A stretch of DNA of 45,167 bases from positions 18,721 to 63,887 of the forward strand of contig JAUMUJ010000003.1 of the NCBI GenBank assembly GCA_030530785.1, written 5' to 3'. Every line of letters begins with the position of its first letter. The first letter of the stretch is position 1. The notes beneath the pieces are model-generated. The model saw only the letters and a list, made by a program, of their open reading frames with translations. It was not told the DNA's origin and searched no databases. Both the position numbers and the translations under genes were made by a program. The stretch comes from Moraxella sp. (GTDB taxonomy: Bacteria; Pseudomonadota; Gammaproteobacteria; Pseudomonadales; Moraxellaceae). Of the stretch, positions 3,827-10,728 are shown piece by piece.

Positions 3827-4760
3827 AATTCACCCCAAAACCCTACAACTCTATGCTATCATATCTCCATTATGGCATATTCATTAGAACTCAAACAAAA
3901 GGCATTAGTCTACTTAGACCAATGTGGCAACATTAGTGCAGTTTGTACTGCCTATGATATTTCAAGAAGCACCTTGTATGCTTGGATTAAAAAACAAGAA
4001 CAAGGAGATTTGTCTTGTCAAAGTGGTGGCAGTCGTGGTTTTAAGGTGGATAGAGATAAGCTTAAAACCTATGTAGAGCAAAATCCTGACGCTTACTTGC
4101 ACGAAATTGCCAAAGTGTTTGATTGTGGCACAAGCACCATCTTTTACGCCTTGCAATCTCTTGGTATCACACATAAAAAAAGACCACAACCTACTTTGAA
4201 CAAGACCCAAACAAGGTCAAAGACTACCAAGACAGATTAAATGGGTTACAAAGCACCCAAGACTGCGAGCTTATCTATATAGATGAGACAGGCATTGACA
4301 CTTATCTACACCGTGCTTATGCAAGAAGTTTAAAAGGTCAAAAAGTCTATGATAAGGTCAGTGGTAAATACTATCAACGAGTATCTTTGGTGGCAGGACA
4401 AATAGGCAACAAAGCCAAACACTTGATTGCACCACTTCTTTAATAACAATACAATGACAAGCAGTCTATTTGAAACTTGGTTTGAACAAATGCTACTGCC
4501 TTGTCTTGATAATCACACCAAACAAACAGGTAGATCTTGCATTGTTATCCTGGATAATGCAAGGTTTCACAGAATGAAACACTTGCAAGAGATTATCAAT
4601 AACACAACATACAACCACATTATCCTACCACTACCACCTTACTCACCTGAACTAAATCCCATAGAACACACTTGGGCAACCATTAAGAAATGGCTGAGAA
4701 GTCATTTGTCAAAGTTTGATAGTGTGGAAGATGGGTTGGTGTATTATTTTGGGGTGAATT
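3827..4760 (+). mobile_element. IS630-family insertion sequence, about 0.93 kb
   Basis: Perfect 14-base terminal inverted repeats bound the element: aattcaccccaaaa at 3827-3840 and its reverse complement at 4747-4760. Between them is a broken DDE transposase of the IS630/Tc1-mariner type. A TA dinucleotide lies directly before the left repeat, as expected for this family. The right flank starts GATTATA rather than TA, so the target duplication is not clean. The stop codon of the transposase overlaps the right repeat. Coding-like debris lies on both sides. Confidence 0.85.
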
Positions 4761-4762
4761 GA
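3872..4762 (+). pseudogene. IS630-family transposase, frameshifted
   Basis: The first part (3872-4240) encodes an N-terminal helix-turn-helix (SRSTLYAWIKKQ). The catalytic part starts in the -1 frame after a seven-A run at 4175-4181 and contains the first catalytic aspartate in IYIDETG. Such a -1 slip on an A tract is a known way for IS630 members to make the full transposase. A second frame change near 4440, after HLIAPLL, returns to the first frame for VILDNARFH and SPELNPIEH, which hold the other catalytic D and E. That second break lies in a ctt-ctt-taa context, is not a typical slippery site, and probably inactivates the gene. All three DDE residues are present. Confidence 0.75.
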
Positions 4763-5025: not shown

Positions 5026-6612
5026 TTATAATTTAATCTCCCCCCACCCAATTCCAAACTTTGCCAAATATTTTCTTAACCTATCAGTGTCATTACCACT
5101 TGCTTTATCAAGCCGTGAATGGTTAAATAACGCCCGTCCTGCACTTGCCATTGTGGGGTGGGTTTGGCAAAGTTTAATGACAGAGAGCAATTGCATTTTA
5201 TCAAACTCATCAATGTCTTGGGTATGGATTTTGGCATATAGAGCAGAACTGATGTTACCATGTTTATCCGTGTTCGTCTCATCGGTCTCCCACAGTTCGT
5301 CCAATCGCCCAATCTCATCAACAACCAGTTTTTCATCAATAATCCCATTGCCCGCAAGCGTGGCAAGGCGTAAAATACTCGCCGACAAATCCCGAAAATT
5401 ACCCGACCACACCGCACGAGAACTCATCGCATACGCCAAATACCGCTCGTAGGCACTGGGGCGAAACCGCACCGCACGCCCAAGCTCTTGGGATACCGCC
5501 ACAAGCTGATAAGCGATGTTGGGAGCGATGTCTTCACGGCGGTCAGCCAAAGCGGGCAGAGTGTATTGCCACACATTGATACGAGCATACAAATCTTCAC
5601 GGAACGTCCCTGCCCGTACGCACGCTTTTAAATCCTTATTTGTCCCTGCAATGAGCCAAAAATCACTGTGTACAAGCGTATCCGACCCCATCGGATAAAA
5701 CGCCTTGTCTTCTAAGGCGGTCAAGAGCATTGCCTGTTCGTCCGCTCCAAGCTCGCCAATCTCGTCCAAAAACAGCACGCCCTTATGAGCGGTTAAAAGA
5801 TAGCCATCTCGTGCCGTCATCGCCCCTGTGAACGCCCCTTTTTTATGCCCAAACAGTGCCGAATATGCCATATCGCCCCGCAACGTAGCACAGTTTACGT
5901 CCACAAACCACCCAGAGACGAGATGACGAGATTTTTTCAGCTCAAAAATCCGCCTTGCCAGCCGAGATTTGCCCGCCCCTGTCGCCCCCATGATGAGCAT
6001 GGGCGAATTTGAGCCGAGTGCGACCTGCTCTATCTGCCTGATAAGGCGGTTAAAGGCGGGATTTTTAGTTTCTATGCCTGTTTTTAAAAATTTGACCGCA
6101 TCGCTTTTGACCTTATCCAAGCGACTGGCAAGAGCATCATAGCGAGCCAAATCAAGGTCTATCACTTCCACACCGCAATCTGTCGTGTCGCCTTTTGGTG
6201 GGGCGGTTTGTAAAATGGTGCTGGGAATCTGTCTGCTTTCTACGAGCAAAAACAGACAAATCTGAGCCACGTGCGTGCCTGTGGTGATGTGGGTAAGATA
6301 ATTTTCTTTTTCAATATCAAAAAGATAGCTGTCCGCCCATTCGGCAAGTTTATCATACACCTCCCCAAAATCCCAAGGATTGGCAAGGGGCATATGGATA
6401 AGATTGACTGTGATGTCGGGGCGTATTTCCTTAATGTCTGCCACGACTTGCAGGGCGAGCCGTTCGTATTGTGGGGCGATAAACATCTCCACACGGTCAA
6501 ACGCCATCACCTTATGGACATTGACATTGGGTCGCCATTTGGCGTGCCGTCTTTGGCTAAATCCATCATCTAATACCGTGCCAAGAAAGCCTATCATCAC
6601 TGATTTTTTCAT
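5026..6612 (-). CDS. rtcR: RtcR, sigma-54-dependent activator of RNA repair genes
   Basis: This 528-residue protein matches RtcR. An N-terminal CARF-like (CRISPR-associated Rossmann fold) sensor occupies roughly residues 1-180. It is followed by an AAA+ sigma-54 interaction domain with Walker A GATGAGKS (209-216), GAFTGA (259-264) for contact with sigma-54, and Walker B VLFLDE (279-284). A C-terminal DNA-binding region ends the protein. RtcR normally activates rtcBA, with its CARF domain keeping it inactive until an RNA-derived ligand binds. Here no rtcA or rtcB is present. The gene is transcribed divergently from a kinase-ligase/phosphoesterase operon that has a good sigma-54 promoter, so that operon is the likely target. 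All motifs needed for activity are intact. Confidence 0.93.
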   Translation of the reverse strand: MKKSVMIGFLGTVLDDGFSQRRHAKWRPNVNVHKVMAFDRVEMFIAPQYERLALQVVADIKEIRPDITVNLIHMPLANPWDFGEVYDKLAEWADSYLFDIEKENYLTHITTGTHVAQICLFLLVESRQIPSTILQTAPPKGDTTDCGVEVIDLDLARYDALASRLDKVKSDAVKFLKTGIETKNPAFNRLIRQIEQVALGSNSPMLIMGATGAGKSRLARRIFELKKSRHLVSGWFVDVNCATLRGDMAYSALFGHKKGAFTGAMTARDGYLLTAHKGVLFLDEIGELGADEQAMLLTALEDKAFYPMGSDTLVHSDFWLIAGTNKDLKACVRAGTFREDLYARINVWQYTLPALADRREDIAPNIAYQLVAVSQELGRAVRFRPSAYERYLAYAMSSRAVWSGNFRDLSASILRLATLAGNGIIDEKLVVDEIGRLDELWETDETNTDKHGNISSALYAKIHTQDIDEFDKMQLLSVIKLCQTHPTMASAGRALFNHSRLDKASGNDTDRLRKYLAKFGIGWGEIKL

Positions 6613-6650
6613 GGATAATCTTCCAAATCTTCGTCAAATTCACACACACA

Positions 6651-6789
6651 TTAAGCTATGGTTTCATTCATCTCTTCAATGGTTGCCCCCTTGTTCGGCG
6701 GTTAAAATACCAAAAACATCATCAAATCGCCCTTTGGTCGTGGGCGAATTGTGAATTGGTATGTCGGTTTGCAAAAAGTCTGCATTCAT
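6651..6789 (-). pseudogene. Frameshifted AbrB/MazE-type antitoxin remnant
   Basis: From the ATG at 6789 the frame reads MNADFLQTDIPIH, then KGRFDDVFGILTAEQGG and a premature stop. Removing one base from the five-C run at 6686-6690 restores QGATIEEMNETIA followed by TAA at 6651-6653. The tail FGIL-x(3)-G-x-x-[IL]-EEM-x-E-x-I is typical of the C terminus of AbrB/MazE-like antitoxins. No toxin gene follows; rtcR begins 38 bases later. The gene is probably a dead toxin-antitoxin scrap. A sequencing error in the C run cannot be excluded. Confidence 0.45.
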
Positions 6790-6801
6790 TTTTTAAATTT
6801 T

Positions 6802-6839
6802 CCTATAATTTTAGATAGAAATCTATCTTTTATTATAGG
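6802..6839. promoter_or_regulatory. 38-base palindrome, candidate RtcR upstream activating site
   Basis: The arms cctataat (6802-6809) and attatagg (6832-6839) are perfect inverted repeats, and an inner pair agatag/ctatct (6813-6818, 6823-6828) continues the symmetry. The centre is about 150 bases before the predicted start of the operon, the usual distance for an enhancer bound by a sigma-54 activator. It also lies just upstream of the dead antitoxin start, so an old antitoxin operator is the alternative. Confidence 0.45.
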
Positions 6840-6905
6840 TTTTTACAAGAATATTGACAAGGTGATTTTTGTTTTTAACTAATTTAAAAATTTTAATTTA
6901 TTAAA

Positions 6906-6918
6906 AATCAATCAGTTA
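6906..6918 (+). promoter_or_regulatory. IHF binding site, perfect consensus match
   Basis: AATCAATCAGTTA fits WATCAANNNNTTR at every fixed position. It lies between the palindrome and the -24 element, where IHF bends DNA to bring a sigma-54 activator to the promoter. The surroundings are very AT-rich, which raises the chance of a random match. Confidence 0.55.
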
Positions 6919-6946
6919 AATACTATTTTTGGCAAATTTTACCAAT

Positions 6947-6963
6947 TTGGCACGACATTTGGA
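6947..6963 (+). promoter_or_regulatory. Sigma-54 (-24/-12) promoter of the RNA repair operon
   Basis: TTGGCACGACATTTGGA matches the YTGGCACG-N4-TTGCW consensus with one mismatch, GG instead of GC in the -12 element. The -24 GG is at 6949-6950 and the -12 pair at 6961-6962, which puts the transcript start near 6974, almost exactly at the 5' end of the tRNA-like RNA. The divergent rtcR gene encodes the matching type of activator. Confidence 0.75.
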
Positions 6964-6976
6964 TAATCAAAAGCAT

Positions 6977-7206
6977 GGGCACGCTGACACAAACGGAGCG
7001 TCATCGCCAAAAAGGTGTACTTATGGGCGACAGCGTAAAAGCTGATACCATAGGCAAGCAGGTTATTTAGCACGGTTACGGATTGCAGGTGCTGGCTGGG
7101 GTAAGCAGTCAAACACTGGCGCACTTTTTCCAATAAATGACTTGGCTGTGCGACTAAAAACGACAGTTATGGTATTTTGCGGGTTCAAATCCCGTCGTGT
7201 CCACCA
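6977..7206 (+). ncRNA. tRNA-like leader RNA with a large insertion, ending in CCA
   Basis: The 3' end is textbook tRNA: a T-arm with stem gcggg/cccgt (7179-7183, 7191-7195) around loop ttcaaat, then acceptor strand cgtgtcc (7196-7202), discriminator A and CCA (7204-7206). The 5' end gggcacg (6977-6983) pairs with that acceptor strand over 7 bases with one G-U. Canonical spacing follows: two linker bases, a D-like arm gac/gtc (6986-6988, 7000-7002) with GG in its loop, one base (A7003), and a five-pair stem tcgcc/ggcga (7004-7008, 7026-7030). The anticodon-position loop is 17 rather than 7 bases, and about 148 bases (7031-7178) replace the variable loop. That insert can form hairpins at 7031-7044, 7069-7093, 7106-7118 and 7120-7152. 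It is not a normal tRNA. An integration-site scrap of a tRNA 3' end is the main alternative. Confidence 0.55.
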
Positions 7207-7224
7207 AATTTTTAGGAGAGTACA

Positions 7225-8736
7225 ATGCAAAAATTCATCTTAATTCGGGGTCATCAAGGCTCTGGCAAATCCACCTTCGCCGATGAAAAAATCGCCGAAT
7301 TTAAAAAAGATTATCCAAATGGCGAAATTGTTCATATTGAAAATGACAAACTCTTAACCGATGAAAATGGCGTATATCATTGGTCGCCAGAACGTATTGA
7401 TAAAGCAGTACGCATGGGGCAATCAATGATGAAAAATGCCTTTGATAAAGCCAAATCCAATCCAAATTTGGATATACTGGTAATTAACTCCAACACCAAT
7501 CAAAAATCATCAAGCTGTATTCACCTATTACAATCGGCTCGTAAACGTGGATTGGTAACAGAAATTTATCGTCTGCATAATTTTTTTGATAATGTGCATA
7601 ATGTTAAAAGAGCCGATGTATTATCCGCTTATGTCAAATTAAACAATAATAAACTGCGTGATGAAATTCATATAGAGCCAATTTACCCAATGAGCGATGA
7701 TATTAAACAAGAGCTTGAAAAAATAAGTACATTTAATAATCAAGACATTCCCTTTGATGAAAACCGTCAAAGCTATATCAGTGATGAGTATTTACAATAT
7801 GGTAAAAGAAATTTTATTATCAAACAATCAAAAACCTATCCAGAGCTATTTGTTTTAAAATATAAAAGAGATGTATTTTTTAATAATACTTTTGATAATG
7901 CCCTGCTTGAAATGCGTGGCACAGTGATTGATGAATATCATAATATCATCGTTCGCCCCTTTAAAAAGGTCTTTAATTATAATGAACGCATCGCCAAAAA
8001 ATCCAAATATCCGATTACCATTGATGATAGCCATCTTGTGGATGCCGTCTTAAAGGTTAATGGCTTTTTGGGTGTATGCACTTATGTAGATTTACCAGAG
8101 ACACACCCAAACCATCATGCCAGTTTTAATAAAAAGGTGCTGTATTCCACCACAGGGTCATTAGACAGTAATTTTGCCAAGATGAATAAGGATCATTGTG
8201 AAAAATATGAACCCTTATTTAAACAATACCCCAATCATACTTTCTTGTTTGAGATTACCGATGAAAAAGACGTGCATATCATCAAAGAAACCTTTGGCGA
8301 GACTTTAATTGGGATAATTGATGTGGCAAGTGGGCGACAATTTAGCGAAAGCGAGATTGATGATATAGCTAATGCGTTTAATGCCAAGCAAGCTAAGCTA
8401 GGCAATGATATTAAAATTATCCGTCCAAATATTATCAAAAATATCACTTTTGGTGAATTAAAAAAACTGTTAAAAAACGTAGAGCACGAAGGATTTATGG
8501 TTTTTGACAGTGCCAGCCAAGAGCTGTTATTTAAATTAAAATCACCATATTATTTGATTTCTAAGTTTTTGGGGCGTAGCAATGCAGGTAATATTGGGCG
8601 TAAACTTGACAAACGCCACGTTGATGAAGAATATTATCCGTTGATTGATTATATCAAAGAAAATAAAGAGATGTTTAATAATTTATCAGAATTGGATAAG
8701 ATTACATTTATTCAAGATTTTTTGAAACAAATTTAG
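7225..8736 (+). CDS. Polynucleotide kinase - RNA ligase fusion (RNA repair)
   Basis: This 503-residue protein joins two RNA repair activities. The N terminus is a P-loop kinase (GHQGSGKST, residues 9-17) of the T4 polynucleotide kinase type, expected to phosphorylate 5'-OH ends. The C-terminal part resembles T4 RNA ligase 1. It has an upstream RG element (E229-M-R-G232) with VRPFKKVFNYNE, nucleotidyltransferase motif I K277-V-N-G280 (the lysine that takes AMP), motif III TFLFE (339-343), motif IV EGFMV (422-426) and motif V FKLK (436-439). KxNG instead of the usual KxDG also occurs in fungal tRNA ligase. No phosphatase domain is seen; the next gene may supply it. AGGAG at 7214-7218 is a strong ribosome-binding site. 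The gene begins 18 bases after the CCA end of the tRNA-like RNA. Confidence 0.85.
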   Translation: MQKFILIRGHQGSGKSTFADEKIAEFKKDYPNGEIVHIENDKLLTDENGVYHWSPERIDKAVRMGQSMMKNAFDKAKSNPNLDILVINSNTNQKSSSCIHLLQSARKRGLVTEIYRLHNFFDNVHNVKRADVLSAYVKLNNNKLRDEIHIEPIYPMSDDIKQELEKISTFNNQDIPFDENRQSYISDEYLQYGKRNFIIKQSKTYPELFVLKYKRDVFFNNTFDNALLEMRGTVIDEYHNIIVRPFKKVFNYNERIAKKSKYPITIDDSHLVDAVLKVNGFLGVCTYVDLPETHPNHHASFNKKVLYSTTGSLDSNFAKMNKDHCEKYEPLFKQYPNHTFLFEITDEKDVHIIKETFGETLIGIIDVASGRQFSESEIDDIANAFNAKQAKLGNDIKIIRPNIIKNITFGELKKLLKNVEHEGFMVFDSASQELLFKLKSPYYLISKFLGRSNAGNIGRKLDKRHVDEEYYPLIDYIKENKEMFNNLSELDKITFIQDFLKQI

Positions 8737-8744
8737 GATTAACC

Positions 8745-9407
8745 ATGATTTATTTTACTTCCGATTGGCATTTTAGCCATAAAAATATTGTTAAATTTTG
8801 CCCAACCTTTCGTACGGCTTTTGATGATATTGATGATATGGATAAAGAGTTGGTGGCACGCTGGAATGCCAGCATCAACCCTGATGATACAGTGTATAAT
8901 TTAGGTGATGTATCATTTAGTCATGATTTAAAAGCGATTGAAAAAACGCTATCGACTTTAAATGGCAAACATCATCTGATATTGGGCAATCATGATGGTC
9001 TCATCGCCCGCCATAAAGAGCGATTTTTAAAGACCCTCAAAAATGATGGCAATCCCATACTGTCATCAGTGCAGGATTATTTAAAATTAAGTTTTAAAGA
9101 ATTAAAACGCACACTTATTTTATGTCATTATCCCATTGATGAATGGGACGGCTGTCATAAGGGATATTATCATCTGCATGGGCATATTCATGACCGCATG
9201 GCAAAGATTAAGGGTAAAATTTTAAATGTGGGCTTGGATTTGCATGGCAGGTTTTTAACGCTTGATGATATTGATGAGTTTTTAAAAGATTTGCCCAATG
9301 TGTCGCATTTTGGCAGTCATGATGAGATTATTTTAAATGATGATGTGATGACAAATCATTTATTAATTAAGCATGAATTGAAAAAAATAAATGGCTTGAT
9401 TGAATGA
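8745..9407 (+). CDS. Calcineurin-like metallophosphoesterase
   Basis: This 220-residue protein has the full metal-binding set of calcineurin-like phosphoesterases: DWH (7-9), GD (54-55), GNHD (81-84), CHYP (127-130) and HGHIH (145-149). The layout with SDWHFSHKNI near the start fits the small cytoplasmic COG4186-type enzymes. It begins 8 bases after the kinase-ligase stop codon. In this context it is a good candidate for removing the 2',3'-cyclic phosphate or 3'-phosphate left by RNA cleavage, so that kinase, ligase and phosphatase complete the repair. That role is inferred from position. A decayed duplicate of its 3' part lies at 10621-10728. Confidence 0.88.
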   Translation: MIYFTSDWHFSHKNIVKFCPTFRTAFDDIDDMDKELVARWNASINPDDTVYNLGDVSFSHDLKAIEKTLSTLNGKHHLILGNHDGLIARHKERFLKTLKNDGNPILSSVQDYLKLSFKELKRTLILCHYPIDEWDGCHKGYYHLHGHIHDRMAKIKGKILNVGLDLHGRFLTLDDIDEFLKDLPNVSHFGSHDEIILNDDVMTNHLLIKHELKKINGLIE

Positions 9408-9445
9408 TTTATTTGGTATATGATAATCTAAACATTTTGGAGCAA

Positions 9446-10333
9446 ATGATGAAAGAGCAAGAATTTATTCATACCCTTTTAACCAAAAACCCTTATTTTA
9501 ATGTGTCTGGCATTACTTCATCAGAAGCCAATTATATCTGTGAACGCATTAAAGAAACCTTAAAACCCATTCAAGATGAAATCAATGGGTTAGAGACGCA
9601 CACTGCCACTTTGGACGGTGAGCCATTGGATAGCTTTAAAAAGGTAGAAAATATTGACGATAAATTAAAGCTCATTGGTGAGCTGTATGCCATTTCTGCC
9701 TTTTTGCGTACCGCCATCAAAGAAAAAGAAAAGCGTATCAATATCATCAATGACAAAATTCGTGAAATTCGCCAAAAAGAAGACGCTCTATTAGAAGACA
9801 TTGACATGAAGATATTAGATAAAATTCGCCGTGTGGATATGGACGATTTTCTTTTAACGTTACCATTATCTGATGTCATTACCTACAAAACTGCCGAATC
9901 TCGGGCATCACACATTGGCAAATTTATTCATAATTTTGATGACATTCGCCACAAACTCACTAAACAAGAACACATTAGTTTTAAACAGGTGGGCGAAAAT
10001 CAAGTTTTTAAAATTCATCACACGCCCTTGTATGAGATTGATGAATTACAACAAACACAAAATTATCTTTTGGCAGAACATAGAGAACATGAAAATACGG
10101 TAAACTTTTATAAAGCCAAATTTCGTGATTTTGAAAACCAAGCCCAAGTGTGTTATGAAGAAACTTTAAATCAACTGCACAATGAAAGAAACACCATCTT
10201 AAATGAGCGAGTAAAAGCAAAAACACAAGCATTAACCGCAGTAAAATCCCAAATTGCCAATTTTAAAATTATCATTCCTAATGAATTTAAAAATACCATT
10301 GACGAATTATTAAAAAAAAGACATAAAATATAA
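9446..10333 (+). CDS. Coiled-coil protein of unknown function, third gene of the RNA repair operon
   Basis: I recognise no family. The protein of about 295 residues is mostly charged and helical, with probable coiled coils around EKEKRINIINDKIREIRQK in the middle and HREHENTVNFYKAKFRDFE toward the end, and has no signal or membrane segment. The frame opens at 9404, overlapping the phosphoesterase stop codon, but GGAG at 9439-9442 sits in front of paired ATGs at 9446 and 9449, so I start it there. Close coupling to the two repair enzymes suggests a partner that binds RNA or holds the enzymes together. This is inference from context only. Confidence 0.75.
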   Translation: MMKEQEFIHTLLTKNPYFNVSGITSSEANYICERIKETLKPIQDEINGLETHTATLDGEPLDSFKKVENIDDKLKLIGELYAISAFLRTAIKEKEKRINIINDKIREIRQKEDALLEDIDMKILDKIRRVDMDDFLLTLPLSDVITYKTAESRASHIGKFIHNFDDIRHKLTKQEHISFKQVGENQVFKIHHTPLYEIDELQQTQNYLLAEHREHENTVNFYKAKFRDFENQAQVCYEETLNQLHNERNTILNERVKAKTQALTAVKSQIANFKIIIPNEFKNTIDELLKKRHKI

Positions 10334-10620: not shown

Positions 10621-10728
10621 GCATAGCAAAAAGATCAAAGGAAAAATTTTAAATGTCCATCATGATTTTCATGGTAGATTTTAACGCTTGATGAGCTTTT
10701 AAAAGATTTACCCAATGTGTCGCATTTG
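10621..10728 (+). pseudogene. Decayed second copy of the phosphoesterase 3' region
   Basis: This stretch aligns with 9196-9310 of the metallophosphoesterase gene. Shared blocks include aaattttaaatgt, ttttaacgcttgatga, ttttaaaagattt and cccaatgtgtcgcattt, with small deletions and frame breaks between them. A further match, attgaatgattt near 10791, corresponds to the end of the same gene. It is a relic of a duplication or rearrangement of the repair operon and cannot encode a product. The remaining bases to 10895 show nothing else. Confidence 0.75.

What the first reader, a model, noticed from the sequence alone, without database searches (positions are those of the whole stretch)
5026..10333. 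RtcR-linked RNA repair operon without rtcA/rtcB: kinase-ligase, phosphoesterase and coiled-coil protein
RtcR (intact CARF sensor and GAFTGA motor) is divergent from three genes that together could heal and seal cleaved RNA: a 5'-kinase fused to a T4 Rnl1-like ligase, a calcineurin-like phosphoesterase (possible 2',3'-cyclic phosphatase) and an unknown helical protein. RtcR is known for control of the RtcB/RtcA pathway. Here it appears tied to a chemically different, phage-T4-like repair route, and the leader carries a tRNA-like RNA. This could be a stress or anti-nuclease tRNA repair module, for example against PrrC-like or colicin-like anticodon nucleases.
Basis: partly seen in the sequence, partly recalled or inferred. 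Interest (0 to 1): 0.92.

Follow-up and report, generated by a model that had tools for sequence, protein, structure and literature searches.

The report
T4-like RNA repair operon under RtcR
In some Moraxella bacteria the broken-RNA sensor RtcR sits next to a phage-T4-like RNA repair kit instead of its usual partners, and the operon begins with a tRNA-shaped RNA that also sits beside RNA ligase genes in other proteobacteria.

Summary
RtcR (5026-6612, -) faces a sigma-54-type promoter and three genes: a 5'-kinase/Rnl1-like ligase fusion (KL), a calcineurin-like phosphoesterase (MPE) and a coiled-coil protein. It is a conserved unit: 7 of 22 same-genus genomes have RtcR, the same 7 have KL, and all 7 are divergently linked with the promoter kept, in two flanking contexts. 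Of the family's 70 other RtcR-bearing genomes, 64 show RtcB in the stretch fetched; KL is in 0 of 65 loci. RtcA is absent from all 10 KL genomes, so KL+MPE probably replaces RtcB+RtcA, though an rtcB persists elsewhere.
The leader holds a 230-nt tRNA-like RNA (6977-7206): cloverleaf, encoded CCA, enlarged 'anticodon' loop, long variable domain. Thirteen strong copies were found (3 before KL, 10 with RtcB); 28 of 38 pairs show double changes in 11 sequences. It reaches no Rfam 15 threshold. In one genome it follows four YrlA Y RNAs before rtcB.
Proposed mechanism: damage-induced heal-and-seal RNA repair with a tRNA mimic. Enzyme activities and induction are inferred. The PrrC/colicin trigger is unsupported either way.

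The parts
5026..6612 (-). rtcR: CARF + AAA+ (GAFTGA) + HTH sigma-54 activator, sensor of broken RNA
   Evidence: NF038308 718 bits over cut-off 650; PF06956 and PF00158; PADLOC RtcR model 6e-227
6813..6828 (.). palindrome AGATAGAAATCTATCT, possible RtcR binding site about 135 bp upstream of the promoter
   Evidence: similar ATAGA-N6-TCTAT palindromes in L018 and L019; none in L014, L016, L017 and only unlike ones in L015 by the same scan; tentative
6948..6962 (+). sigma-54-type promoter TGGCACGACATTTGG
   Evidence: TGGCA[CT]-N5-TTG at this place in all 7 RtcR-KL loci; RpoN gene present in the genome
6977..7206 (+). tRNA-like RNA (TLR): acceptor 6977-6983/7196-7202, D stem 6986-6988/7000-7002, anticodon-like stem 7004-7008/7026-7030 with 17-nt loop, hairpin 7031-7044, helix 7045-7052/7168-7175 closing a long variable domain, T arm 7179-7195, A73 7203, CCA 7204-7206
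   Evidence: 6-sequence alignment 227 of 227 cells paired, 15 of 38 pairs with double changes; 11 sequences 98.3% paired, 28 of 38 pairs with double changes; de novo RNAalifold recovers the cloverleaf arms
7225..8736 (+). KL: N-terminal polynucleotide 5'-kinase-like domain (P-loop GHQGSGKS) fused to T4 Rnl1-like ATP-dependent RNA ligase (K277 = predicted nucleotidyl lysine)
   Evidence: hhalign to T4 Pnkp E 4e-6 and T4 Rnl1 E 4.8e-5 with K277 opposite K99; ligase motifs invariant in the 10 aligned KL proteins
8745..9407 (+). MPE: calcineurin-like metallophosphoesterase, predicted 2',3'-cyclic phosphate / 3'-phosphate healer
   Evidence: phrog_547 6.9e-45; SDxH, GD, GNHD, HYP, GHxH motifs, invariant in the 10 aligned MPE proteins; PDB 1xm7 E 3.5e-10 over residues 1-93
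9404..10333 (+). CC: 309-aa helical protein of unknown role (an internal ATG at 9446 fits homologues better)
   Evidence: no family match; present with RtcR-KL in 7 of 7 loci but interrupted in 2, L015 and L016; not found in the 3 KL loci without RtcR

Best explanation
This is a damage-induced RNA repair operon in which the usual RtcB/RtcA pair has been replaced by a T4-like heal-and-seal set. Proposed steps. (1) A nuclease breaks tRNA or another RNA, leaving 2',3'-cyclic phosphate and 5'-OH ends (inferred, from published work on Salmonella RtcR). (2) Cyclic-phosphate RNA fragments bind the CARF domain of RtcR, which activates RpoN-dependent transcription from the promoter at 6948-6962 (inferred; the parts are shown). 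No RtcA is needed when cleavage itself leaves cyclic phosphate. (3) The transcript starts about 3 nt before a 230-nt tRNA-like RNA and continues through KL, MPE and CC (position shown; start site predicted). (4) MPE opens and removes the cyclic or 3'-phosphate, the KL kinase phosphorylates the 5'-OH, and the KL ligase seals with ATP (inferred from families and conserved motifs). MPE would also destroy the RtcR ligand and so switch the response off, the opposite of RtcA. (5) The tRNA-like RNA is a tRNA mimic that most likely occupies the tRNA-cleaving nuclease or a tRNA-handling repair enzyme as decoy, scaffold or sensor substrate (inferred; weakest step).
For: Co-occurrence: RtcR and KL in the same 7 of 22 same-genus genomes, adjacent and divergent in all 7 with the promoter conserved. 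The unit is kept in two flanking contexts: coaBC/fadD/rph (L014-L016) and dsbC-like/hom (window, L017-L019) (gene names are mine, from the sequences). KL and MPE lie together in 10 of 10 full-length KL loci, including 3 in genomes without an RtcR match. Replacement of RtcBA: RtcB in 59 of 65 other RtcR loci fetched (5 of the 6 misses are stretches of 2.2 kb or less, the sixth, L136, is a full 10 kb), RtcA in 55, KL in 0. RtcA in 0 of 10 KL genomes and 3 of 3 controls. Shared accessory parts with the family's RtcB-type operons: a ~270-aa Cys-rich protein in 3 KL loci resembles proteins of RtcB-type loci (best E 1e-20), and DUF6847 in L017. Shared RNA: the TLR stands directly before KL in 3 loci and with RtcB in 10. 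Catalytic residues. MPE and Rnl1-type ligase genes are also adjacent in Vibrio phage K354. [quoted passage not shown]).
Against: No activity or expression data. The 6 of 7 KL-linked RtcRs placed in the tree form one clade, on a long branch that the tool flags, so the 7 loci may reflect one founding event. KL exists without RtcR in 3 genomes. An rtcB is present in all 10 KL genomes (with stops in one), so repair may not depend on KL alone. The TLR is missing from 4 of 7 RtcR-KL operons and all 3 KL-only loci. The iScience abstract says RtcAB are required for RtcR activation in E. coli (PMC9650030, abstract start and passages seen), which this system cannot meet with RtcA. MPE is under Pfam's cut-off, so its substrate is a guess.
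Confidence: 0.7

Rival explanations
1. KL-MPE is a phage-derived or anti-phage nucleic-acid repair cassette whose link with RtcR is incidental. RtcR here controls mainly the tRNA-like RNA, and the enzymes repair DNA or phage-damaged RNA under other control.
For: Relatives of the ligase half and of the phosphoesterase are common in phages (610 and 1,456 records of 50,697). KL-MPE occurs without RtcR in three genomes.
Against: The sigma-54-type promoter begins only about 51-56 nt before the KL start codon in the loci that have no TLR (L014-L017), so RtcR presumably drives KL there. No phage record covers 80% or more of KL, and no IMG/VR relative was found with two conserved kinase-half peptides.
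Confidence: 0.15
2. The tRNA-like RNA is a substrate of the neighbouring ligase: its enlarged anticodon-like loop or variable domain is cut and must be resealed, so that the RNA reports repair capacity or matures only by ligation.
For: 13 of 13 strong copies are linked to an RNA ligase gene, KL or RtcB. The loop is about 12-19 nt with a conserved A-rich 5' part.
Against: No splice-like boundary or shared cleavage motif was identified. Removing the insert does not leave a canonical 7-nt anticodon arm (by eye). The Salmonella YrlA mimic was reported not to be cut (PMC7790460, passage seen).
Confidence: 0.2
3. The tRNA-like RNA is a cis-acting leader that controls KL translation or transcript processing and has no role in trans.
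For: It ends 18-23 nt before the KL start codon in 3 loci and within about 75 nt of the rtcB start in 4, L129, L187, L188, L192.
Against: In L040-L044 it lies downstream of rtcB, and in L186 inside a 13-tRNA array. It has an encoded CCA end like a mature tRNA.
Confidence: 0.2

Closest known systems
[quoted passage not shown] coli, Salmonella)
   Same: RtcR divergent from a sigma-54-type promoter; a tRNA-mimic RNA in the operon, as in the rsr-yrlBA-rtcBA type; the family's own RtcB-type operons also share accessory genes (DUF6847, Cys-rich protein)
   Different: ligase is a PNK-Rnl1 fusion plus MPE instead of RtcB plus RtcA; no RtcA or Rsr found in the genome
Phage T4 PseT (Pnkp) and RnlA (Rnl1) tRNA repair
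   Same: same chemistry predicted: 5'-kinase, Rnl1-type ligase, phosphate removal
   Different: kinase fused to ligase; the 3'-healing function would be a separate calcineurin-like enzyme, not the phosphatase half of T4 Pnkp; chromosomal and RtcR-linked
Bacterial Pnkp1-Rnl-Hen1 complex (PMC4411300, abstract and outline seen)
   Same: bacterial heal-and-seal repair of ribotoxin-cleaved RNA
   Different: no Hen1 match among the operon's proteins; different domain order
YrlA Y RNA (Rfam RF02553)
   Same: tRNA-mimic RNA before rtcB in RtcR operons; stands beside the TLR in L188
   Different: TLR does not match RF02553 even at E 10 (window) or E 1 (four loci); TLR has acceptor stem and CCA at its ends, whereas the YrlA modules in L135 and L188 read T arm before D arm (by eye)

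Membership tests
RtcR transcription activator | CARF-AAA+-HTH, equivalog score, GAFTGA loop, divergent target operon with sigma-54 promoter, RpoN in genome | tested here: met
[quoted passage not shown]
   literature only (PMC7790460)
rtcBA operon | rtcB in the operon | tested here: not met
   the only RtcB match of the genome is on another contig
rtcBA operon | rtcA in the operon or genome | tested here: not met
   0 of 10 KL genomes, 3 of 3 controls; the window's assembly is 87% complete
T4 Rnl1-type RNA ligase | family profile and nucleotidyltransferase motifs | tested here: met
   PF09511 over cut-off; R231, K277, E343, E422, K437, K439 opposite T4 R54, K99, E159, E227, K240, K242 (K277 by hhalign, MAFFT placed it one residue off); essentiality of the T4 residues is recalled
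T4 Pnkp | N-terminal P-loop kinase | tested here: met
   hhalign E 4e-6 over residues 1-122; phrog_505 8.4e-6
T4 Pnkp | C-terminal 3'-phosphatase half | tested here: not met
   KL aligns only to T4 Pnkp 1-113 of 301
calcineurin-like metallophosphoesterase | metal-binding motifs and profile match | tested here: met
   motifs; phrog_547; against: below Pfam Metallophos_2 cut-off (14.6 of 27 bits)
2',3'-cyclic phosphatase | activity on RNA 2',3'-cyclic phosphate | not testable with these tools
   inferred from context only
Pnkp-Hen1 repair system | Hen1 2'-O-methyltransferase | tested here: not met
   no such match in the three operon proteins; genome not searched for Hen1
YrlA Y RNA | match to RF02553 | tested here: not met
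   none for the window leader at E 10 or for four other TLR loci at E 1; positive controls L135 and L188 match
YrlA Y RNA | Ro/Rsr partner in the genome | tested here: not met
   0 TROVE matches in the own genome
tRNA | cloverleaf with 7-nt anticodon loop, callable by ARAGORN | tested here: not met
   cloverleaf and CCA present but loop about 12-19 nt and a long insert; ARAGORN none
tmRNA | RF00023 score and tag reading frame | tested here: not met
   17.9 bits against 47 needed; ARAGORN calls no tmRNA

The most novel reading that the evidence does not exclude
The leader RNA founds a previously undescribed family of tRNA-mimic RNAs (full cloverleaf, CCA end, giant variable domain) that accompanies RNA ligases of two unrelated chemistries, RtcB and PNK-Rnl1, in gamma- and betaproteobacteria. 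Together with Y RNAs it shows that a tRNA mimic is a recurrent working part of RtcR-type repair, acting as decoy or sensor for the RNA-cutting nuclease or the ligase.
Probability: 0.55. Interest if true: 0.85.

Novelty: new variant of a known kind. Interest (0 to 1): 0.74.

Why it matters
RtcR is known for control of RtcB/RtcA. Here the same damage sensor faces a different chemistry, which implies that the signal (RNA with cyclic phosphate ends) and not the ligase type is what evolution conserves. Because MPE would erase the RtcR ligand while RtcA makes it, the two versions should have opposite feedback, a direct test of how the response is switched off. The tRNA-like RNA is a concrete new handle on an open question stated in the literature: what the tRNA mimics in these operons do.

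Tried and rejected
Single-sequence folding gave no clear support: z -2.24 for the window RNA but -0.23 and -0.57 for L018 and L019; covariation was needed. Whole-genome searches with the covariance model are noisy: 211 of 249 family genomes matched at E 0.01. In 369 genomes of the class 15 matched at 1e-8, of which the own copy and 3 others were strong; the other 11 were not counted, including L189 (35.9 bits, at a contig edge) and L190 (a tmRNA gene). Five further weak genome-wide matches were fetched (L167-L171): those in L167, L168, L169 and the weakest of three in L170 are tmRNA genes, the other two of L170 and that of L171 are unresolved. L160 (30.7 bits, shortened, just after rtcB) was not counted. 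RNAalifold on all 11 sequences (MAFFT) did not recover the 8-bp variable-domain helix or the ACUAAAAA hairpin; on 6 it did. PDB sequence search found no relative of KL at E 1. PADLOC gave RtcR/CARF models and two weak mad8 matches (E 0.007-0.009), no other defence gene. PrrC-like genes: the 18.7 kb left of the window was read as an ORF list only; an hsdS-like ORF lies at the window's left edge (by eye), but no anticodon nuclease was searched for by profile. The RtcR tree used 35 of 43 candidate rows; 8 were not extracted by my motif filter, L017 among them. The idea that the TLR codes for a peptide was dropped because reading frames shift between close homologues (by eye).

Papers: PMC7790460 sections 13 and 15 and passages; PMC9650030 start of abstract and passages; PMC11090510 and PMC7824862 passages; PMC4411300 abstract and outline; the rest as search listings. 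Burroughs and Aravind 2016 and Chen et al. 2014 are not held; what they say is recalled, and they may describe part of this. No paper on RtcR with a kinase-ligase or with this RNA was among the rows listed by searches.
Full report
WHAT IS THERE. The window belongs to a Moraxella relative: the 5 named matches to KL are M. lacunata, M. caprae, M. boevrei and two Moraxella sp.. RtcR at 5026-6612 (-) is a full equivalog. Opposite it lie a sigma-54-type promoter (6948-6962), a 230-nt tRNA-like RNA (6977-7206), KL (7225-8736), MPE (8745-9407) and CC (9404-10333). KL starts with a P-loop kinase region that aligns with T4 Pnkp residues 1-113 (hhalign E 4e-6) and ends with an Rnl1-type ligase that aligns with T4 Rnl1 (E 4.8e-5), K277 facing T4 K99. 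In the 10 aligned KL proteins the P-loop core and the ligase motifs are invariant (the last P-loop serine is T in one). MPE keeps the calcineurin-type metal motifs in 10 of 10. CC has no known relative in the libraries searched.

IS IT A UNIT. KL was found in 11 of 249 genomes of the family at E 1e-10; 10 are full length and one (G020) is a ligase half inside a 781-aa ORF. RtcR was found in 77 of 249. In the window's own genus both are in the same 7 of 22 genomes, always divergent neighbours, with the promoter conserved in 7 of 7. RtcR-KL loci lie in two flanking contexts, and KL-MPE lies in three more loci, L020-L022, whose genomes have no RtcR match. MPE accompanies KL in 10 of 10. The 6 of 7 KL-linked RtcRs placed in a tree form one clade (100/100), on a long branch that the tool warns about, so the association probably arose once and was kept; counts of genomes are not independent events. 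In 369 genomes sampled from the class, none but the window's own has KL at E 1e-20. The unit is therefore rare.

REPLACEMENT OF RTCB/RTCA. Of the 70 RtcR-bearing genomes outside the genus, 65 loci were fetched with the side upstream of rtcR (a second RtcR copy of G233 was not): RtcB in 59, RtcA in 55, DUF6847 in 38, KL, MPE and CC in 0. Of the 6 without RtcB, five stretches are 2.2 kb or shorter and one (L136) is a full 10 kb, so it is a true exception in that stretch. The remaining 5 (L040-L044) also carry RtcB. RtcA is absent from 10 of 10 KL genomes and found in 3 of 3 controls. RtcB is present in 10 of 10 KL genomes (with stops in one) against 2 of the 9 KL-less same-genus genomes tested out of 15. 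In the window's genome it stands on another contig without rtcA or rtcR beside it; the neighbourhoods of the other nine were not mapped. No sigma-54-type site precedes it by pattern; among 11 rtcB loci scanned two had one loose match each in the upstream stretch. KL operons also share smaller parts with RtcB operons: a Cys-rich protein of about 270 aa (L014, L017, L020 against L040, L041, L108, L121) and DUF6847 in L017.

THE tRNA-LIKE RNA. It was first seen in the window and two relatives, then by BLAST in five RtcB-type operons and on a plasmid, then by a covariance model built from six sequences. Thirteen strong copies (55 bits or more) are known here: window, L018, L019 before KL; L129, L187, L188, L192 directly before rtcB; L040-L044 after rtcB; L186 in a 13-tRNA array behind rtcB. 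Six of the 13 trained the model, so their scores are by construction. All 13 are linked to an RNA ligase gene. RtcR is seen beside 10; none was found in L186, L187 or L192, where L186 is cut by its contig end. In the genome-wide search, copies over 70 bits were in 8 genomes, all among the 77 with RtcR and none among the 172 without (Fisher 6e-5, kinship ignored). It is nevertheless patchy: 9 of 77 RtcR genomes at 55 bits or more, and 3 of 7 RtcR-KL operons.

Its structure is a tRNA cloverleaf: 7-bp acceptor, 3-bp D stem, 5-bp anticodon-like stem with a loop of about 12-19 nt, a short hairpin whose loop begins GUAA, a long domain with the conserved core GAGGAUGCAGGUGCUGGCU...CACUGGCGCGCG, a T arm of 5 bp and 7 nt, and an encoded CCA. 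On six sequences aligned by MAFFT 227 of 227 cells pair and 15 of 38 pairs have double changes, against 6.3 in shuffles (0 of 500). On 11 sequences aligned to the model 98.3% pair and 28 of 38 have double changes, against 13.2 (0 of 500; this alignment leans to the structure). Independent RNAalifold runs recover the cloverleaf arms; that on 11 sequences misses two helices of the variable domain. Single sequences are not unusually stable. In all three KL loci that have it, the RNA begins at +4 of the start predicted from the promoter, although the sequence between differs. It does not match YrlA, while YrlA-like copies in Rsr-containing operons do. In L188 the order is RtcR, Rsr, four YrlA, TLR, RtcB, RtcA, so the two mimics are different RNAs in one operon. 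No copy was found in phages, E. coli or plasmids other than that of Eleftheria terrae at BLAST sensitivity.

HOW IT PROBABLY WORKS. [quoted passage not shown] The Moraxella system, lacking RtcA, would respond to cyclic ends directly. KL and MPE give a complete set for converting cyclic-phosphate/5'-OH breaks to sealed RNA. Adjacent MPE and Rnl1-type genes in Vibrio phage K354 suggest that the pairing is used elsewhere. The role of the tRNA-like RNA is open: decoy, scaffold or ligase substrate. For YrlA, a competitive-inhibitor role has been suggested in print (PMC7790460).

VERDICT. The finding is real and better supported than a reader could know. As an operon it is a new variant of RtcR-controlled RNA repair; its leader RNA is, as far as Rfam 15 and the searched papers go, undescribed.

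Noticed in passing
window 10630-10727: A decayed duplicate of part of the MPE gene (77% identity over 108 nt) lies downstream of CC, a likely scar of recombination in the operon.
   Followed up: partly
L020 10030-10700, L021 9685-10300, L022 9580-10200: The three KL-MPE loci without RtcR share a different upstream stretch with a motif like CTGAGCTACGACCCCGCC; possibly another regulatory RNA (by eye).
   Followed up: no
L186 940-4317: An rtcB gene is followed by an SPFH-type protein gene (by eye) and an array of 13 tRNA genes with the tRNA-like RNA inside it, suggesting that spare tRNAs are supplied together with repair.
   Followed up: partly
L131, L132, L133, L135 leaders: Rsr-rtcB operons with several tandem YrlA-like RNAs whose tRNA modules differ in sequence (by eye; Rfam run on L135 only).
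   Followed up: partly
L043 and L044, about 7954-8247 and 7420-7748: Copies of the tRNA-like RNA with an inserted segment of about 60 nt near the D loop that shares sequence between the two genomes (by eye).
   Followed up: no
G000 C43 (L001, L197) and 9 other KL genomes: An rtcB in genomes without rtcA tracks KL: 10 of 10 KL genomes against 2 of 9 KL-less same-genus genomes tested.
   Followed up: partly
window 3872-4762: Pieces that look like a transposase pair stand beside rtcR (by eye).
   Followed up: no
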